Of a DNA stretch of 64,000 nucleotides, positions 30,862 to 62,182 are shown piece by piece. A program made the translations under genes and the position numbers. Within the stretch, counting starts at the first letter, position 1. The number at the start of each line of letters is the position of its first letter. Under the pieces are notes generated by a model, which had not been told where the DNA came from, searched no databases, and saw nothing but the letters and a program-made list of their open reading frames with translations. The stretch comes from Microbacteriaceae bacterium VKM Ac-2855. Its GTDB lineage: Bacteria > Actinomycetota > Actinomycetes > Actinomycetales > Microbacteriaceae. Where the stretch lies: NCBI GenBank assembly GCA_013204985.1, contig JABMLG010000003.1, positions 558,001 to 622,000 of the forward strand, in the 5' to 3' direction.

Positions 30862-33016
30862 TCGCCGTCTCGGCGACCGGTCCCACGCGGGAGTCGCCGA
30901 GCGCTTCGGAGGTGTAGCGCACGCCGATCACGTGGTCGCCGGCATCCGTGATCGTAAGGCTCGTCGTCGTTCCGAGGAAGCGGATCCGCTGCGTGTCGAC
31001 GACGGTGCCGTCGACGAGGATCTGCACGTCTCCGGGGTCGCCGACCAGGAGGAGGCCGATCGACGAGCCGACCGTTGCGGTGCTCCGGGCGATCACGGCC
31101 GGCGCCTTCACCGTCACGGATGTGGTGAGGGGAGGGGCAGCGGTGTCGTCGGGCTGGCTGATGGTGAGCTCGGAGGTACCCGCGGGAAGGCCGGAGAGTA
31201 CCGGCACGCGCCAGGCGCCGGATGCGTCGGCGATCGTCGTCGCGAGCACCTCCGCACCACGGCTGATCCGCACCGTCGATCCCGGCTGGGCGGCGCCCTC
31301 GAGGCGAGGGAACACCTGGTGCCGCGGGTCCGTCACTGCCGTCATCGTCATCACCACGGGGGTGTGCGTGGGTGTGGGCGTCGAGGTGGGTGTGGGTGTT
31401 GGCGTAGGTGTTGCTGTCGGGGTGGGGGTCGGTGTCGGTGTTGCCGTCGGCGTCGGTGTTGCCGTCGGTGTTGCGGTCGCTCTCGGTGTCGATGTGGCTC
31501 TCGGTGTCGATGTGGTTGCAGGCGTCGATGTTGCGGTCGGCATCGGTCTGGTCGTCGGCGTCGAAGTGGTCGCCGGTGTCGTCGCCGGTGTCGTCGTCGT
31601 GCTTGCCGTCGGCGTCGTGTCGAGCGTGAGCGGGTTGGTCGGTACGTTGCTCGCCCGGCTCGGAGGGGAGCTCGAAATCGGTGCGGCCTCGGCCGCCGCC
31701 GACGCCGGAAGTGCCACCGCGACGAGCGGCGGGAGGGTCGCCGGAACGGTGGTCGGCTCGGGCTCGACCATCGCTTCGGGCGAGGAGGTCGGCTCGCTGG
31801 TCGGCGTCGCCGTCGGCGTAGCGATCGTGGTAGCGGTCGGCGTCGCCGTTGCCGTCGGCGTGGTGGCCGTCGGCGTGGTGGGTGTCGCGCCGGGGGTTGG
31901 CGCGTCCGGTGTCGGCCCGGAATCGGACGGAGTCGTCTCGCTGGTCGCCTCCGCGATCACCACCGCGCTCGACTCGCCCCCGACGATCGTCGGCCCGAGG
32001 ATGGCGGCGGCCGCGATCCCGGCCGCCAGCACGGCACCGCCGATCACGGACGCGGCGACGCCGACGGAGACCCCGGCGACCGTCGCGGCCGCGGTCGTCG
32101 CAGCTCCGGAGGCCGCCGCCCCGGCGGCACTCGCTCCGCCGACGGTCCCGGAGCCGGATCCGAGGTGGCCGGAGATCACGGCGCCCGCGGCGACGACGGT
32201 CGCGGGTGCCCCCGCCTGCAGCCAGGCCAGGTACGCCGTCGCGCCGCCGATTCCGGCAGCCAGAGGCAGCAGCACGAGCGCGAGCCGACTGCCGACGTCG
32301 TGCGCCTCCTCCGCGACGATCGAGCACCGGGTGCACTCCGCGAGGTGGGCACGCAGCCGCCCGCTGTCGCGAGAGCCGAGATTGCCACGGGTGTACGACC
32401 CGAGACGTTCGATCACCCAGCGACATTCCGAGTCGACCGGTGCATCCGTCAGATGCGCCTGGATCCACGCCTGCCGCAGACCCTCTCGCGCCCGGTAGGT
32501 CAGCGCGGCGACGGCGTTCGCTTTCATGCCCAGCAGTGGGCCGATCGTCTGCGCGGTCATGCTCTCGACCTCGCTGTACCACAGCGCCTCCTGCCACCGC
32601 GTGGGCAGGCTCCGGAAGGCCTGAGCGGTCAGACTGCGATCGAGGGCCTCGAGAGTGCGATCCTCGCTCGTGACCGGATCCTCGAAGTCCTCGAACTCGT
32701 CGATCGGCCGCTCGTGGCGGAGCTTGCGCCCCCACTCCGCCGCCGTGTTGCGGATCGTGGTGAACAGGTACGGGCGGAACGCCCCGGTGGGGCCGCCACC
32801 CCGCTTGATGGCTTGGAAGATCTTCGCGAACGACTCCGAGACCAGGTCGTCCGGATCCGTGTTGCTCGAATGCGAACGGGCCACGGTGCGGCCGGCGGAG
32901 GAGTGTCGTCGCCACAGCTCGGCGAACGCCTCCGTTCCACCGCGTTTCGCCTGTTCGACGAGCTCGACGTCGCTGAGCGTCTCGACGGGCGCGCGGCTGG
33001 CGTTCTCGGCATTCAC
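30848..33016 (-). CDS. Membrane-anchored ECF sigma factor fused to its own anti-sigma and extracellular domains
   Basis: 722-residue multidomain protein. Residues about 15-190 are an ECF sigma factor: sigma2 with DPDDLVSESFAKIFQ and FRPYLFTTIRN, sigma4 with LPTRWQEALWYSEVE. A zinc-finger anti-sigma motif HxxxCxxC follows (H224, C228, C231). Two hydrophobic segments follow (about 243-267 and 310-345), then a Thr/Pro low-complexity stalk with many PT repeats, and two Ig-like beta modules to the C-terminus. Fused sigma/anti-sigma proteins of this general plan are described in actinobacterial ECF groups. GTG 33016 has GAGGAG upstream. The stalk is encoded by degenerate GTCGGCGTC-like repeats prone to slippage. 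The extracellular ligand is unknown. Confidence 0.88.
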   Translation of the reverse strand: MNAENASRAPVETLSDVELVEQAKRGGTEAFAELWRRHSSAGRTVARSHSSNTDPDDLVSESFAKIFQAIKRGGGPTGAFRPYLFTTIRNTAAEWGRKLRHERPIDEFEDFEDPVTSEDRTLEALDRSLTAQAFRSLPTRWQEALWYSEVESMTAQTIGPLLGMKANAVAALTYRAREGLRQAWIQAHLTDAPVDSECRWVIERLGSYTRGNLGSRDSGRLRAHLAECTRCSIVAEEAHDVGSRLALVLLPLAAGIGGATAYLAWLQAGAPATVVAAGAVISGHLGSGSGTVGGASAAGAAASGAATTAAATVAGVSVGVAASVIGGAVLAAGIAAAAILGPTIVGGESSAVVIAEATSETTPSDSGPTPDAPTPGATPTTPTATTPTATATPTATTIATPTATPTSEPTSSPEAMVEPEPTTVPATLPPLVAVALPASAAAEAAPISSSPPSRASNVPTNPLTLDTTPTASTTTTPATTPATTSTPTTRPMPTATSTPATTSTPRATSTPRATATPTATPTPTATPTPTPTPTATPTPTPTPTSTPTPTHTPVVMTMTAVTDPRHQVFPRLEGAAQPGSTVRISRGAEVLATTIADASGAWRVPVLSGLPAGTSELTISQPDDTAAPPLTTSVTVKAPAVIARSTATVGSSIGLLLVGDPGDVQILVDGTVVDTQRIRFLGTTTSLTITDAGDHVIGVRYTSEALGDSRVGPVAETAINVR

Positions 33017-57860: not shown

Positions 57861-57876
57861 TCGAACGTGTGTTCGA
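57861..57876 (+). promoter_or_regulatory. LexA (SOS) box upstream of the HNH gene
   Basis: TCGAACGTGTGTTCGA is a perfect 16-bp palindrome matching the actinobacterial LexA consensus TCGAAC-N4-GTTCGA. It ends 28 bp before the ATG, overlapping the expected promoter. Confidence 0.8.
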
Positions 57877-57904: not shown

Positions 57905-59296
57905 ATGGAAGATACGAGCAGCCCGCAGACACCCGAAGAGGTGCGCAACACGGTCCGGCAGCACGGAGACCGCGCCGCGCACCTCGCCCGGTCGACGGCT
58001 CCTGTGCTGCTCGCGGGGCTTGAGGAGTTGTACGCCGGGTATCTCGTCGCCCGGAGCCGACCGGAACTGTTCGCCGCCGGGAAGCATTTGGTGCGCGGGG
58101 ATCTGCGGGAGCTGGTGGAGCGGTCGATCCGGGCCGAGTTCGCTGTCGCGCTCGGTGTGTCGGAGTGGGTCGCGTCGCGCGAGCTGGAGCGGGCGCAACT
58201 GCTGGTCGAGGATCTGCCTGTGACGCGTTCTGCGTTGGCGGATGCGCGGATGCGGTGGGATGCCGGGCAGGTCATCTGCGACGTCGCCGGCGGCCTGGAT
58301 CGCTCCTGCCGGGCCGTGCTGGATGAACGGGCGGTTGAGCTCGTCGGCGAGTTGACGCCGGCGCAGTTGAAGAAGGCGTTGCAGCAGCTGCGCGAGACGC
58401 TGGATGAGACGCCGCTTGCCGAGCGTCACGCGGCAGCGAAGAGGCGGCGGAACGTGTGGGTGACGCCGGAGCAGGATGGGATGGCGACGTTGTCCGCGTT
58501 GCTGCCGGCGCCGGTCGCTGTTGCGGCGTTCAACCGTCTGGATCGCATCGCCCATGCGGTCCGCGATCTGGAGGGTGAGGAGCGTTCCCTGTCACAGTTG
58601 CGGGCGGATGCGGCCGGTGATCTCCTCTGCGACGGCGACATCGCCGGCACCACCCCGATCCACGGCGACACCACCCCGACACCGACGTTCGTGCGCGGAA
58701 TCCGCGCCGAAGTGCGCGTCACCCTCCCGGCGACGACCGCCGCGGGGTTGGACGACGAGCACGGTCACCTCGACGGGTACGGCGTCATCGACGCCGACAC
58801 CGCCCGCGAACTTGTCGCCGCAGGGGATGCGTTCTTCCGGGTGTTCACCGACCCGGTCACGTGCATGGTGACGAGCGTCGAGCGGATGCTTCGCACCCCA
58901 CCGAAGGCGATGCGGCTGTTCATCGAGCTGCGCGCCGACACCTGCATGTTCCCCGGCTGCATCCGCCCCGCATCCAAGGCCGAGATCGACCACGCGATCG
59001 AATGGCGCAACGGCGGCCACACCGCCACCGAGAATCTCCTGCCCCTATGCGTCGCCCATCATCATGTGCGCCACGGCGACCGGTGGACCTACATACCGCA
59101 CGCCGACGGCACCGCCGACTGGACGACCCCCACCGGCCGCCACGTGACGACCCGCCCCGCTCCCGTTCCAGGCGCGAGACCGGCTCCGCGATTCACCGAC
59201 CCGCCCTCGTCCGGGCCGGTGCCGGACCCGGAGCCGGAATCTCCGGTATCGATCTTCGATCCGCCTCCCGCGGACCTCGGACCGACCCCGTTCTGA
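57905..59296 (+). CDS. DUF222 / HNH endonuclease (13E12-type)
   Basis: 463 residues. The N-terminal DUF222 domain (about residues 20-300, with RMRWDAGQVICDVAGGLD and LPATTAAGLDDEHGHLDG) is followed by a C-terminal HNH nuclease: CMFPGC, AEIDHAIEWRNGG, TATENLLPLCVAHHHVRH. The tail is Pro-rich and ends SIFDPPPADLGPTPF. ATG 57905 follows the SOS box by 28 bp, so expression should rise on DNA damage, as reported for some mycobacterial 13E12 genes. These genes occur in multiple copies per genome. The last 60 bp and the region past the stop resemble the unit of the tandem array downstream. Cellular role unknown. Confidence 0.9.
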   Translation: MEDTSSPQTPEEVRNTVRQHGDRAAHLARSTAPVLLAGLEELYAGYLVARSRPELFAAGKHLVRGDLRELVERSIRAEFAVALGVSEWVASRELERAQLLVEDLPVTRSALADARMRWDAGQVICDVAGGLDRSCRAVLDERAVELVGELTPAQLKKALQQLRETLDETPLAERHAAAKRRRNVWVTPEQDGMATLSALLPAPVAVAAFNRLDRIAHAVRDLEGEERSLSQLRADAAGDLLCDGDIAGTTPIHGDTTPTPTFVRGIRAEVRVTLPATTAAGLDDEHGHLDGYGVIDADTARELVAAGDAFFRVFTDPVTCMVTSVERMLRTPPKAMRLFIELRADTCMFPGCIRPASKAEIDHAIEWRNGGHTATENLLPLCVAHHHVRHGDRWTYIPHADGTADWTTPTGRHVTTRPAPVPGARPAPRFTDPPSSGPVPDPEPESPVSIFDPPPADLGPTPF

Positions 59297-59429
59297 CGGT
59301 CGAGCCCGCCGTGTGACGCCGATCGCTTCGAGCATCTCGTTCTCGATGGTGAGGCGGTGACGCTGCCGTCGACACTCTGCGTCCCGATCGGGATGATCGA
59401 GCGCGCCCGCTGACCGTCTCGAGCTTCTT

Positions 59430-60575
59430 GTGTGCGAGCGCGATGCCCGATGGCCTCTTGACCGTCAATCCCTCCAGCGCGGATCTCGGCACAACCCGGT
59501 TCGCGTGCTCGAGCCCGCCTTCAGAACCGGGCTGGTTCGAACACGCGGGCGCCACCGGCGACCACCTTTCCGGCGATCGCGATGCGGATGCCCTGGCGCA
59601 TCAGGCAAGCATCGTCCCCGATCATCGATCCGCCTCGCGCGGATCTGGGCCCGGCCAGATTCGCTCAGGCGAGCCCCTCATCAGAACCCACCGGGCTCGA
59701 GCACGCGGGCGCCACCGGCGACCACCTTTCCGGCGATCGCGATGCGGATGCCCTGGCGCACCAGGCCAGCAGGGTCTCGATCGTCGATCCGCCTCGCGCG
59801 GATCTCGGCTCAACACGGTTCGCGTGCGCGACCCCCCTTCAGAACCCACCGGGCTCGAGTGCGCGGGGGCCACCGGCGACCACCTTTCCGGCGATCGCGA
59901 TGCGGATGCCCTGGCGCACCAGGCCAGCAGTGTCTCGATCATCGATCCGCCTCGCGCGGATCTTGGCCCGGCCCGGTTCGCTCAAGCGAGCCCTTTTTCA
60001 GAACCCACCGGGCTCGAGCACGCGGGCGCCACCGGCGACCACCTTTCCGGCGATCGCGATGCGGATGCCCTGGCGCACCGGGCCAGCATCGTCCCCGATC
60101 ATCGATCCGCCTCGCGCGGATCTCGGCCCGGCCCGGTTCGCGTGCTCGAGCCTTCAGAACCGGGCTGGTTCGAGCACGCGGGCGCCACCGGCGACCACCT
60201 TCCCGACGATCGCACTGCGGATGCCCTGGCGCACCAGGCCAGCAGTGTCTCGATCATGGATCCGCCTCGCGCGGATCTGGGCCCGGCCAGGTTCGCTCAG
60301 GCGAGCCGTTCATCAGAACCCACCGGGCTCGAGTGCGCGGGGGCCACCGGCGACCACCTTCTCGGAGATCGCGCTGCGGATGCCCTGGCGCACCAGGCCA
60401 GCAGTGTCTCGATCATCGATCCGCCTCGCGCGGATCTTGGCCCAACACGGTTCGTGTGCGCGACCCGCCTTCAGAACACGGCGGGCTCGAGCACGCGGGC
60501 GCCACCGGTGACCGCCTTCTCGGAGATCGCGATGCGGACGCCCTGGCGCACCGGGCCAGCGGCGTCCTCAGCCGT
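59430..60575. repeat. Tandem array of a ~158-bp unit, about seven to eight copies
   Basis: The marker GATCCGCCTCGCGCGGATCT recurs at 59627, 59786, 59944, 60104, 60259 (and 60418), giving periods of 155-160 bp; a degenerate first copy starts near 59430. Each unit joins a segment resembling the HNH gene 3' end to a segment resembling the neighbouring glycosyltransferase gene (about 60945-60970). The period is not a multiple of three in most copies, so frames drift and the long plus-strand frames here are not credible genes. The segment 59297-59430 holds nothing else recognisable. Confidence 0.9.
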
Positions 60576-60623
60576 CGAGCCGCCAGGTCCAGGGCTCGGG
60601 CCCATACCGCGCGGTGATCACGA

Positions 60624-60661
60624 CGGTCGAGCCTGTCAGCAGATGCCGACAGGCTCGACCG
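60624..60661 (-). terminator. Terminator of the glycosyltransferase gene
   Basis: CGGTCGAGCCTGTC and GACAGGCTCGACCG pair perfectly (14 bp) around 10 nt, directly after the minus-strand stop at 60671. Confidence 0.8.
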
Positions 60662-60670
60662 TTGGGCGGA

Positions 60671-61975
60671 TCAGCCGAGCTCACCAACCGGGTCGCGCCG
60701 CCACGCCGTCGACGGAACGGCCTCGAACATTTTGTCGAAGACGCGACGGCGATCGAACTGCAGCGCATACGCGCGGGCTCGGTCGGCCCACTCCATCCGC
60801 TGCTCCGGCGTGGTCTCGAGGACCGCGTGGTCGATCGCAGCGGCGATCGCCTCCGCATCCTCGATCGGGATGATCAGGGCGTGGCCGCCGACGGCCTCAC
60901 CGATACCTCCCGTGAGCGTGGTGATCACCGGGCCGCCACCGGCGAGCATCTTCTCGGCGAGCGCGATGCCGAAGGTCTCGACGAACTCCGGTAGGGGCTT
61001 GCTCGGCAGCACGAACGCCGAGCATCCGGCCATCAGATACGGCTTCTCCGCGTCGCCGACATCGTCGAGGAAGCGGATCCGCTCCGCGAGCGGCGACTCG
61101 GACGCGCGCACGCGCAGGGCGGGCAATTGCGGCCCGCGGCCCGCGATGACGAGAATCTGCTCCTGTGACGATCGGCTCCGCTCGAATCCGGCGATGAGGT
61201 CGTCCACTCCCTTCGCCTCAGTGATCCGCGAGAGGAAGAGCACGTAGCCGTCGCGCTCGAGCCCGCGTGCGGCGAGCACGTCCTCGATCACGGCTTCGTC
61301 GAGATCGAGGTAGCGGTCGGCGTCGATCGCCGGGTACGACACGGTGATGCGGTCGGCGCACTGCGCCGCGAATCCGGTGCCGAACAGCTCGTCGACCCGC
61401 CTCGCCTCCGAGATGATCAGGCGCCGGGTGTACTCCGAGACCGCGACGCAGTGGTCCTGCGAGAGGTAGCTCGAGAGGATGTGCGCCGCGGCGCCCAGCC
61501 TGCCCTCCTCGACGGCCGTGCGCACGACGTTGGTGACATCAGAGCCGACCGCCTCGGCGATCGTGGTGACGTTCACCGGTAGCCCCGTGCTCCACGCGGC
61601 CCGAACGGCGTCGGCGACCGCGAGGGTGTGCGGGCTGAGGTAGAGCGACAGGCACACGGTCGGCACGCCATCCGTGAAGAGTTCCACCAGTCGCCCGGTG
61701 ATCCCGGCGAGGTAGCGTCCGTCAGGCACTTTGTAGTCTCCGACGGGTGCGGGGCGTTCGACGATGATGCCGGGACCGTACGGCAGAACGCTGTCGAGCG
61801 GCTTGAGCGGCAGACCGGCCGCTTCGAGGCGTTCGATGGGCCAGGTGACGATCCGCACCTCGTCGAATCCGCGTTCGCGCGCCGTCTCGGCGAGGTTGCG
61901 GGCCTCGACGGAGTGGCCGCAGATCACGGGATCCGCACGAACGATGATCACCAGCCGGTTCTCGATGGGCTTCAT
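60671..61975 (-). CDS. GT4-type glycosyltransferase, 434 aa
   Basis: GT-B fold, retaining type. The N-terminal domain begins ENRLVIIVRADPVICGHSVEARNLAE. The C-terminal nucleotide-sugar domain shows GYVLFLSRITEAKGVDDLIAGF, LVIAGRGPQLPALRV, the LMAGCSAFVLPSKPLPEFVETFGIALAEKMLAGGGPVI block (E-x7-E type) and GHALIIPIEDAEAIAAAI. AAGGAG lies 7 nt before ATG 61975. It may act with the adjacent GH92 mannosidase in mannoside metabolism or a surface glycan; that link is inferred from position only. Confidence 0.88.
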   Translation of the reverse strand: MKPIENRLVIIVRADPVICGHSVEARNLAETARERGFDEVRIVTWPIERLEAAGLPLKPLDSVLPYGPGIIVERPAPVGDYKVPDGRYLAGITGRLVELFTDGVPTVCLSLYLSPHTLAVADAVRAAWSTGLPVNVTTIAEAVGSDVTNVVRTAVEEGRLGAAAHILSSYLSQDHCVAVSEYTRRLIISEARRVDELFGTGFAAQCADRITVSYPAIDADRYLDLDEAVIEDVLAARGLERDGYVLFLSRITEAKGVDDLIAGFERSRSSQEQILVIAGRGPQLPALRVRASESPLAERIRFLDDVGDAEKPYLMAGCSAFVLPSKPLPEFVETFGIALAEKMLAGGGPVITTLTGGIGEAVGGHALIIPIEDAEAIAAAIDHAVLETTPEQRMEWADRARAYALQFDRRRVFDKMFEAVPSTAWRRDPVGELG

Positions 61976-62001
61976 GGCACAACTCCTTCTCGACCTGAAT
62001 A

Positions 62002-62070
62002 GTTCTGACTGACGTGAATGGTTCTGACTGACATGACTGGTTCTGACTGACGTGTGGTTCTGATCGACCG
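62002..62070. repeat. 19-bp direct repeats in the glycosyltransferase promoter region
   Basis: GTTCTGACTGACGTGAATG at 62002 and 62021 is followed by shortened copies at 62040 and 62057. They lie 27-95 nt upstream of ATG 61975, where a promoter is expected, so they may be iterated regulator sites. Confidence 0.7.
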
Positions 62071-62091
62071 AACGGCGTCTGACGCGGCCCC

Positions 62092-62147
62092 GGGGATGCC
62101 AAGACGGGGATGCCAGGACGGGGATGCCAGGGCGGGGATGCCAGGAC
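62092..62147. repeat. Four 14-bp tandem repeats between GH92 and the glycosyltransferase
   Basis: GGGGATGCCAGGAC, with one or two changes, at 62092, 62106, 62120 and 62134. Sits just past the GH92 stop, adjoining the 19-bp array. Confidence 0.8.
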
Positions 62148-62182
62148 GGGGAGAGACCTGACGGGGTCGAACTGACGCGTGC

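What the first reader, a model, noticed from the sequence alone, without database searches (positions are those of the whole stretch)
59430..60575. 158-bp tandem array whose unit resembles both flanking genes
Seven to eight copies of a ~158-bp unit fill the gap between a DUF222-HNH gene and a convergent glycosyltransferase gene. One part of each unit (about 60-70 bp ending CTCGAGCC) resembles the HNH gene 3' end and the bases just past its stop (59245-59305). Another part (GGCGCCACCGGCGACCACCT and the following GCGATGCG) resembles the glycosyltransferase gene near 60945-60975. This suggests amplification of a fused junction fragment. The link to an SOS-inducible nuclease raises the possibility that the array is a product or target of its activity.
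Basis: partly seen in the sequence, partly recalled or inferred. Interest (0 to 1): 0.7.

Follow-up and report, generated by a model that had tools for sequence, protein, structure and literature searches.

The report
Repeat array built from neighbouring genes
About seven imperfect 159-base repeats between two bacterial genes look like an old, decayed copy-and-paste product of parts of both genes, one of them a multi-copy likely nuclease gene with a DNA-damage-type control site; the repeats probably have no function of their own.

Summary
Seven units (155-160 bp) plus a probable partial eighth lie at 59459-60600 between a DUF222-HNH gene and a convergent glycosyltransferase gene. One unit searched against the 4.7-Mb genome (40 of 147 candidates scored) matches, outside the array, only those two neighbours at E<=0.001. 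The unit consensus aligns to 59246-59310, 14 bp past the HNH stop, and to 60923-60972 in the glycosyltransferase (scores 65 and 50; best of 1130 background chunk-strands 38; 0 of 1000 shuffles). Most likely a fused fragment of both genes was amplified and then decayed (units 74-92% alike). Five of seven unit lengths break frame, folding is inconsistent, and 397 other family genomes gave no match at E<=1e-8: I take it as a non-coding minisatellite.

That the nuclease makes or targets it is not shown. For: the HNH gene is one of 8 similar copies; all 6 full ones carry a LexA-type box; 4 of 8 have a large array just downstream, against 0 of 14 other DUF222 genes here (p=0.0096). Against: those four arrays are of three unlike kinds, the window array is diverged, and the link is weak elsewhere.

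The parts
57861..57876 (+). LexA/SOS-box-like palindrome TCGAACGTGTGTTCGA, inside the region shared by all 6 full copies of this HNH subfamily
   Evidence: 0 mismatches here; 0 in 5 of the 6 full copies, 1 in the sixth; consensus recalled
57905..59296 (+). DUF222-HNH gene (PF02720 5.2e-21; HNH PF01844 3.4e-4, 21.1 bits against a cut-off of 21.4); one of 8 similar copies, 6 full and 2 cut by contig ends
   Evidence: searched from codon 2, 57908
59246..59310 (+). HNH 3' end plus 14 bp past the stop codon: source-like segment of the unit
59311..59458 (.). pre-array stretch, with a possible decayed antisense glycosyltransferase piece (59375-59420 to 60851-60898)
   Evidence: score 38, above all of 1130 background chunk-strands, p 3e-4; the protein-level test was negative
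59459..60567 (.). seven repeat units (160,159,158,160,155,159,158 bp)
60568..60600 (.). probable partial eighth unit (HNH-tail-like)
   Evidence: permissive alignment of 60551-60622, no control
60623..60662 (.). strong hairpin (19-bp arms, 95% complementary), likely terminator between the convergent genes; the 37 bp from 60622 match 70% to 59295-59331 at the HNH stop
   Evidence: fold z -7.1
60671..61975 (-). glycosyltransferase gene (PF00534 2.1e-23)
60923..60972 (.). glycosyltransferase segment (antisense of ..GIALAEKMLAGGG..) resembled by all seven units (scores 40-50)

Best explanation
The array is a non-coding minisatellite in a convergent gene gap. A fragment joining the 3' end of the DUF222-HNH gene (through its stop codon) to an antisense piece of the neighbouring glycosyltransferase gene arose by local tandem duplication with internal deletion. 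Both pieces lie in the array in the same order and direction as on the chromosome, and each unit-to-unit joint runs from glycosyltransferase-like to HNH-tail-like sequence, as at a tandem-duplication joint. It then grew by unequal recombination or slippage, partly in multi-unit steps, and decayed by point changes and small indels. Shown: the array, the two resemblances, their order and direction, a duplicated multi-unit block, and no match in the other genomes searched. Inferred: the duplication-with-deletion route, the recombination mechanism, and the lack of function.
For: Outside the array only the two flanking genes match one unit at E<=0.001 (40 of 147 candidates scored). Scores 65 and 50 against a background maximum of 38, per-chunk Gumbel p 6e-9 and 5e-6, 0 of 1000 shuffles. 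The HNH match continues past the stop codon and is stronger to this copy than to the two best paralogous tails (56 and 41). Block of 300 bp repeated at 632 bp, 90%. Five of seven unit lengths are not multiples of three. Folding z -0.7, +0.7 and -2.2 in the 3 unit pieces tested. Among 398 family genomes only this one matches at E<=1e-8, with two candidates scored in each genome listed. No phage or plasmid match at E<=1e-5. No Rfam match at E<=1.
Against: The unit lacks the ~250 bp of glycosyltransferase gene between its stop and the copied piece, so a simple duplication is not enough. The glycosyltransferase-like piece is no closer to this gene than to one ortholog (50 and 50; the other 10 of 11 orthologs score 32-47), so it may be old or from another copy. 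The supposed glycosyltransferase remnant at 59311-59458 failed at protein level (2044 of 3000 random chunks score as well). Of 19 arrays of score >=250 tested in this genome, none of the other 18 matches both flanks (for several of them the background held copies of the same repeat, which weakens that test), so the route is not shown to be a habit of this genome.
Confidence: 0.72

Rival explanations
1. The DUF222-HNH nuclease, induced by DNA damage, nicks or cuts near its own 3' end or in the gap, and repair of those breaks builds arrays (product), or the arrays are its insertion targets.
For: LexA-type box in the shared part of all 6 full copies. Homology of those copies starts 51-70 bp before the start I assigned and in 11 of 15 pairs ends within 0-14 bp of the stop codon. 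4 of 8 copies have an array of TRF score >=400 starting within 1.5 kb 3', against 0 of 14 other DUF222 genes here (p 0.0096) and 1 of 94 other DUF222 genes examined (p 8e-5). Array density around 100 DUF222 genes is highest in the first 1 kb 3' (1.8-2.1%) and the first 500 bp 5' (1.5%), though the 3' value leans on this genome's own copies. Papers (passages only): 13E12 genes in the LexA regulon with traits of mobile elements (PMC5005354).
Against: The four large arrays are of three unlike sequence kinds. Arrays are common in this genome (9 of 20 random 20-kb regions hold one of score >=150, 1 of >=400). In relative G012, 0 of 7 listed loci of the dispersed repeat lie by a DUF222 gene. The window array is diverged, with no sign of present turnover in the one genome held.
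Confidence: 0.12
2. Ordinary intergenic minisatellite whose likeness to the glycosyltransferase is chance or shared composition; only the HNH-tail part is truly derived from a neighbour.
For: Chance-like matches of E about 1e-5 to another gene occur in three relatives. The unit's protein-level score to the glycosyltransferase is only 39 over 15 residues, with no background computed for it.
Against: Score 50 against a background maximum of 38 in 1130 chunk-strands and 39 in 1000 shuffles, and the place is the adjacent gene.
Confidence: 0.13
3. Functional repeat: a repeated coding domain, an RNA, or a stacked terminator.
For: An ORF of 481 aa runs through it; one terminator-like site at 59975-59992 and one promoter-like site at 59369-59397.
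Against: Five of seven units shift the frame; no consistent fold in the 3 unit pieces tested; a strong terminator-like hairpin already exists at 60623-60662.
Confidence: 0.03

Closest known systems
Bacterial intergenic minisatellites / VNTR-type arrays (MIRU-VNTR of M. tuberculosis is named in abstracts listed; the rest recalled)
   Same: Tandem imperfect units in a gene gap, with multi-unit steps
   Different: Unit is traceable to both flanking genes; length variation between strains could not be tested
REP13E12 / 13E12 repeat family (DUF222-HNH) of M. tuberculosis
   Same: Dispersed DUF222-HNH genes, LexA-type box, high similarity among copies (gene conversion: preprint PMC13061034, passages; LexA regulon and mobile-element traits: PMC5005354, passage; repeat class with HNH and DUF222: PMC10589994, passage)
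   Different: Here homology mostly ends at the stop codon, and 4 of 8 copies of one subfamily have large arrays just downstream; the passages read do not mention arrays

Membership tests
Bacterial minisatellite/VNTR locus | Head-to-tail imperfect repeats of unit > ~9 bp | tested here: met
   period 159 x 6.8
Bacterial minisatellite/VNTR locus | Copy number differs between strains | not testable with these tools
   one genome per species is held
DUF222-HNH (13E12 type) gene | DUF222 domain above the curated cut-off | tested here: met
   PF02720 75.7 bits, cut-off 24.4
DUF222-HNH (13E12 type) gene | HNH domain | tested here: inconclusive
   PF01844 21.1 bits, just under the cut-off of 21.4 (E 3.4e-4)
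DUF222-HNH (13E12 type) gene | LexA/SOS control | tested here: inconclusive
   perfect box (consensus recalled); expression not testable
DUF222-HNH (13E12 type) gene | Dispersed multi-copy repeat | tested here: met
   20 DUF222 genes; 6 full and 2 contig-end copies of this subfamily
Phage- or plasmid-borne repeat, or described RNA family | Match in the phage, plasmid or Rfam collections | tested here: not met

The most novel reading that the evidence does not exclude
A family of SOS-inducible DUF222-HNH genes spreads as gene-only cassettes (box to stop codon), and its DNA cutting at the cassette's 3' end seeds tandem arrays from whatever sequence lies there. The window array would be such a scar, caught with both parents still next to it.
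Probability: 0.1. Interest if true: 0.75.

Novelty: new member of a known kind. Interest (0 to 1): 0.34.

Why it matters
In my view the birth of a bacterial minisatellite is seldom traceable. Here the unit can be traced to parts of both flanking genes, so the locus is a readable example of an array born from a gene junction. If the link between SOS-box DUF222-HNH copies and arrays holds in complete genomes, it would give a testable activity for a common gene family whose function is listed as unknown.

Tried and rejected
Coding repeat: rejected, five of seven units shift the frame. Structured RNA or DNA: rejected, fold z-scores -0.7, +0.7, -2.2 in the 3 unit pieces tested. Phage or plasmid origin: no match. 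Defence gene: the HNH protein has 0 PADLOC matches at E<=0.01 and 0 NCBIfam matches; the PDB search gave only three engineered or de novo proteins at weak E-values. Unit as a dispersed repeat: only the neighbours and one paralogous tail match in this genome. Scan for close HNH relatives in named genomes: 62 pattern matches, none confirmed. The idea that big arrays generally copy both neighbours: of 19 arrays of score >=250 tested only this one does; L095, L112:11987, L232:9130 and L249 match one flank. An 84-bp perfect-palindrome consensus of the other, dispersed repeat (called near-perfect in notebook entry 5) was inflated by pooling hits of both strands; the 2 single copies folded give z about -2, although most copies in the list match the model on both strands. 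A protein-level proof that 59311-59458 is a glycosyltransferase remnant failed; notebook entry 4 states that remnant too firmly and gives the box one base off. In one search I used wrong counts (4/9, 0/13; p 0.017); corrected to 4/8 and 0/14. An earlier count said 8-9 or 9 copies; 8 is right. One paper opened for DUF222 (PMC10123090) was about DUF2220 and is not used.

Rows dropped and limits: the 1130 background chunk-strands leave out L112 and L232, which hold paralogous HNH tails, and the window. One search has 100 DUF222 genes from 101 loci; the two contig-end copies (C3, C9) are not in it. Of 187 DUF222 matches in 15 genomes I fetched the 20 of this genome and 80 chosen from the listed genus hits. 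The background rate of arrays (3 in 790 kb) pools 400 kb of random regions and ~390 kb around DUF222 genes and leaves out the loci fetched because of repeat hits (L232-L237). Searches score only part of their first-look candidates (40, 2 in each genome listed, 150 in each), so absences and counts are lower bounds. (unit against 80 named glycosyltransferase loci, best score 47) did not separate gene from downstream region and is not used. The association p-values do not model gene gaps properly.

Full report
What is there. Between a DUF222-HNH gene (57905-59296, +) and a glycosyltransferase gene (60671-61975, -) lies an array that TRF places at 59477-60560, period 159, 6.8 copies. I cut seven units of 160, 159, 158, 160, 155, 159 and 158 bp from 59459 to 60567; 60551-60622 probably carries on as a partial eighth, by a permissive alignment without a control. 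Pairwise identity of units is 74-92%; the two highest values are for units two and four apart, and a 300-bp block recurs at 632 bp with 90% identity, so the array grew at least partly in multi-unit steps.

Resemblance to the neighbours. A single unit searched against the 4.7-Mb genome (40 of 147 first-look candidates scored) gives 9 matches at E<=0.001: seven are array, the other two are the glycosyltransferase gene (60923-60972, 80% of 50 bp) and the HNH 3' end (59250-59287, 84% of 38 bp). A two-unit query also finds a paralogous HNH tail. By Smith-Waterman the consensus matches 59246-59310 with score 65, continuing 14 bp past the HNH stop codon, and 60923-60972 with score 50. The best of 1130 background chunk-strands from the same genome is 38, and none of 1000 dinucleotide shuffles reaches these values. 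That background left out two loci with paralogous HNH tails; with them in, those two tails score 56 and 41 and nothing else exceeds 38 in 964 chunks. A warning: the same unit part reaches E about 1e-5 in three relatives against a gene that I read by eye as an MFS transporter, so raw E-values in this GC-rich DNA should not be trusted alone; calibrated score and adjacency carry the claim.

How it may have formed. In every unit the HNH-like piece precedes the glycosyltransferase-like piece, in the direction they have on the chromosome, and the joint between units goes from the second to the first. That is what a tandem duplication spanning the two gene ends, with loss of the middle, would leave. 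The stretch before the array, 59311-59458, may hold an older glycosyltransferase piece: 59375-59420 matches 60851-60898 (score 38, above all 1130 chunk-strands, p 3e-4), but no reading frame supports it, so I count this as a hint only. The glycosyltransferase-like piece is as close to one ortholog in a relative as to the window's own gene (50 and 50; ten others 32-47), so the event is probably not recent.

Function. Five of seven unit lengths break frame; three unit pieces folded as DNA give z -0.7, +0.7 and -2.2; no Rfam family matches at E<=1; a strong terminator-like hairpin already sits at 60623-60662 (z -7.1). One promoter-like and one terminator-like consensus site were found. Of 398 family genomes only this one matches the array at E<=1e-8. 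I see no evidence of function.

The HNH gene. It is one of six full and two contig-end copies; full copies are 87-93% alike in pairwise blastn. Their homology begins 51-70 bp before the start I assigned (57869 in the window copy). In 11 of 15 pairs of full copies it ends within 0-14 bp of the stop codon, and in the other 4 it falls short of it; in the copy at C1:592k the frame runs on about 137 bp past the shared end. In three copies (C3:1, C3:98k, C9) weaker homology (68-71%) runs on for about 200-420 bp. The shared part includes a perfect or one-mismatch LexA-type box in all six full copies. Similar gene-bounded homology is seen among the listed pairs in other genomes of the genus, with some pairs extending up to ~140 bp past the stop. 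Gene conversion among dispersed copies, reported for REP13E12 in M. tuberculosis (preprint PMC13061034, passages), or mobility would both give this. LexA control of 13E12 members and their mobile-element traits are in print (PMC4181829 and PMC5005354, one passage each).

Arrays beside this subfamily. Arrays of TRF score >=400 begin within 1.5 kb 3' of 4 of the 8 copies (window 159 bp; C22:363k 51-126 bp; C22:333k 128 bp; C3:1 146 bp) and of 0 of 14 other DUF222 genes in this genome (Fisher p 0.0096), and of 1 of 94 other DUF222 genes examined (p 8e-5). Arrays also occur 5' of some DUF222 genes of other genomes (for example L176, score 741). Two of the four (C22:333k and C3:1) belong to a separate dispersed repeat found at 19 or more loci in this genome, 4 of them by DUF222 genes, and at 7 listed loci in relative G012 (11 of 15 matches listed), none of them by a DUF222 gene. 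So a link to the nuclease is possible but unproven, and the window array is not part of that dispersed family (no hit).

Taxon. Literature on DUF222, 13E12, minisatellites and Rathayibacter tandem repeats was searched; in the listings and the passages read I saw no report of arrays beside DUF222 genes. Papers listed but not opened may hold more.

Noticed in passing
own genome: C21:330765-331432, C12:555727-556361, C25:44394-45510, C22:335204-336228, C3:481-1475, C12:618820-620180 and 13 further loci (partly held as L233, L234, L235, L098, L112): A dispersed ~84-bp imperfect-palindrome repeat, solo or in arrays of 69-184 bp period; the two non-DUF222 arrays whose flanking ORFs I listed (L233, L234) lie between convergent ORFs. 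At least 19 loci here, 7 listed in relative G012, no match in the 13 other genus genomes at E<=1e-4 with 150 candidates scored in each.
   Followed up: partly
C3:1-720, C3:97.8-98.3k, C9:15.1-15.5k (L112, L099, L232): In three SOS-subfamily DUF222-HNH copies this dispersed repeat follows the stop codon in the same register, so gene and repeat may have moved together; looks a little like REP-RAYT (recalled), untested.
   Followed up: partly
15 genus genomes (187 DUF222 matches): In several genomes DUF222-HNH copies are 80-95% alike at DNA level and share little beyond the gene, suggesting repeated species-specific spread or conversion (80 of the non-own copies examined).
   Followed up: partly
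window 61992-62152: Short tandem arrays (19-bp x3.9, overlapping 36-bp x2.2, and 14-bp x4.4) just upstream of the glycosyltransferase start.
   Followed up: no
window 31366-31596 and 31787-31888: Clusters of 6-42-bp GTCGGC-rich tandem repeats, perhaps a repetitive coding region.
   Followed up: no
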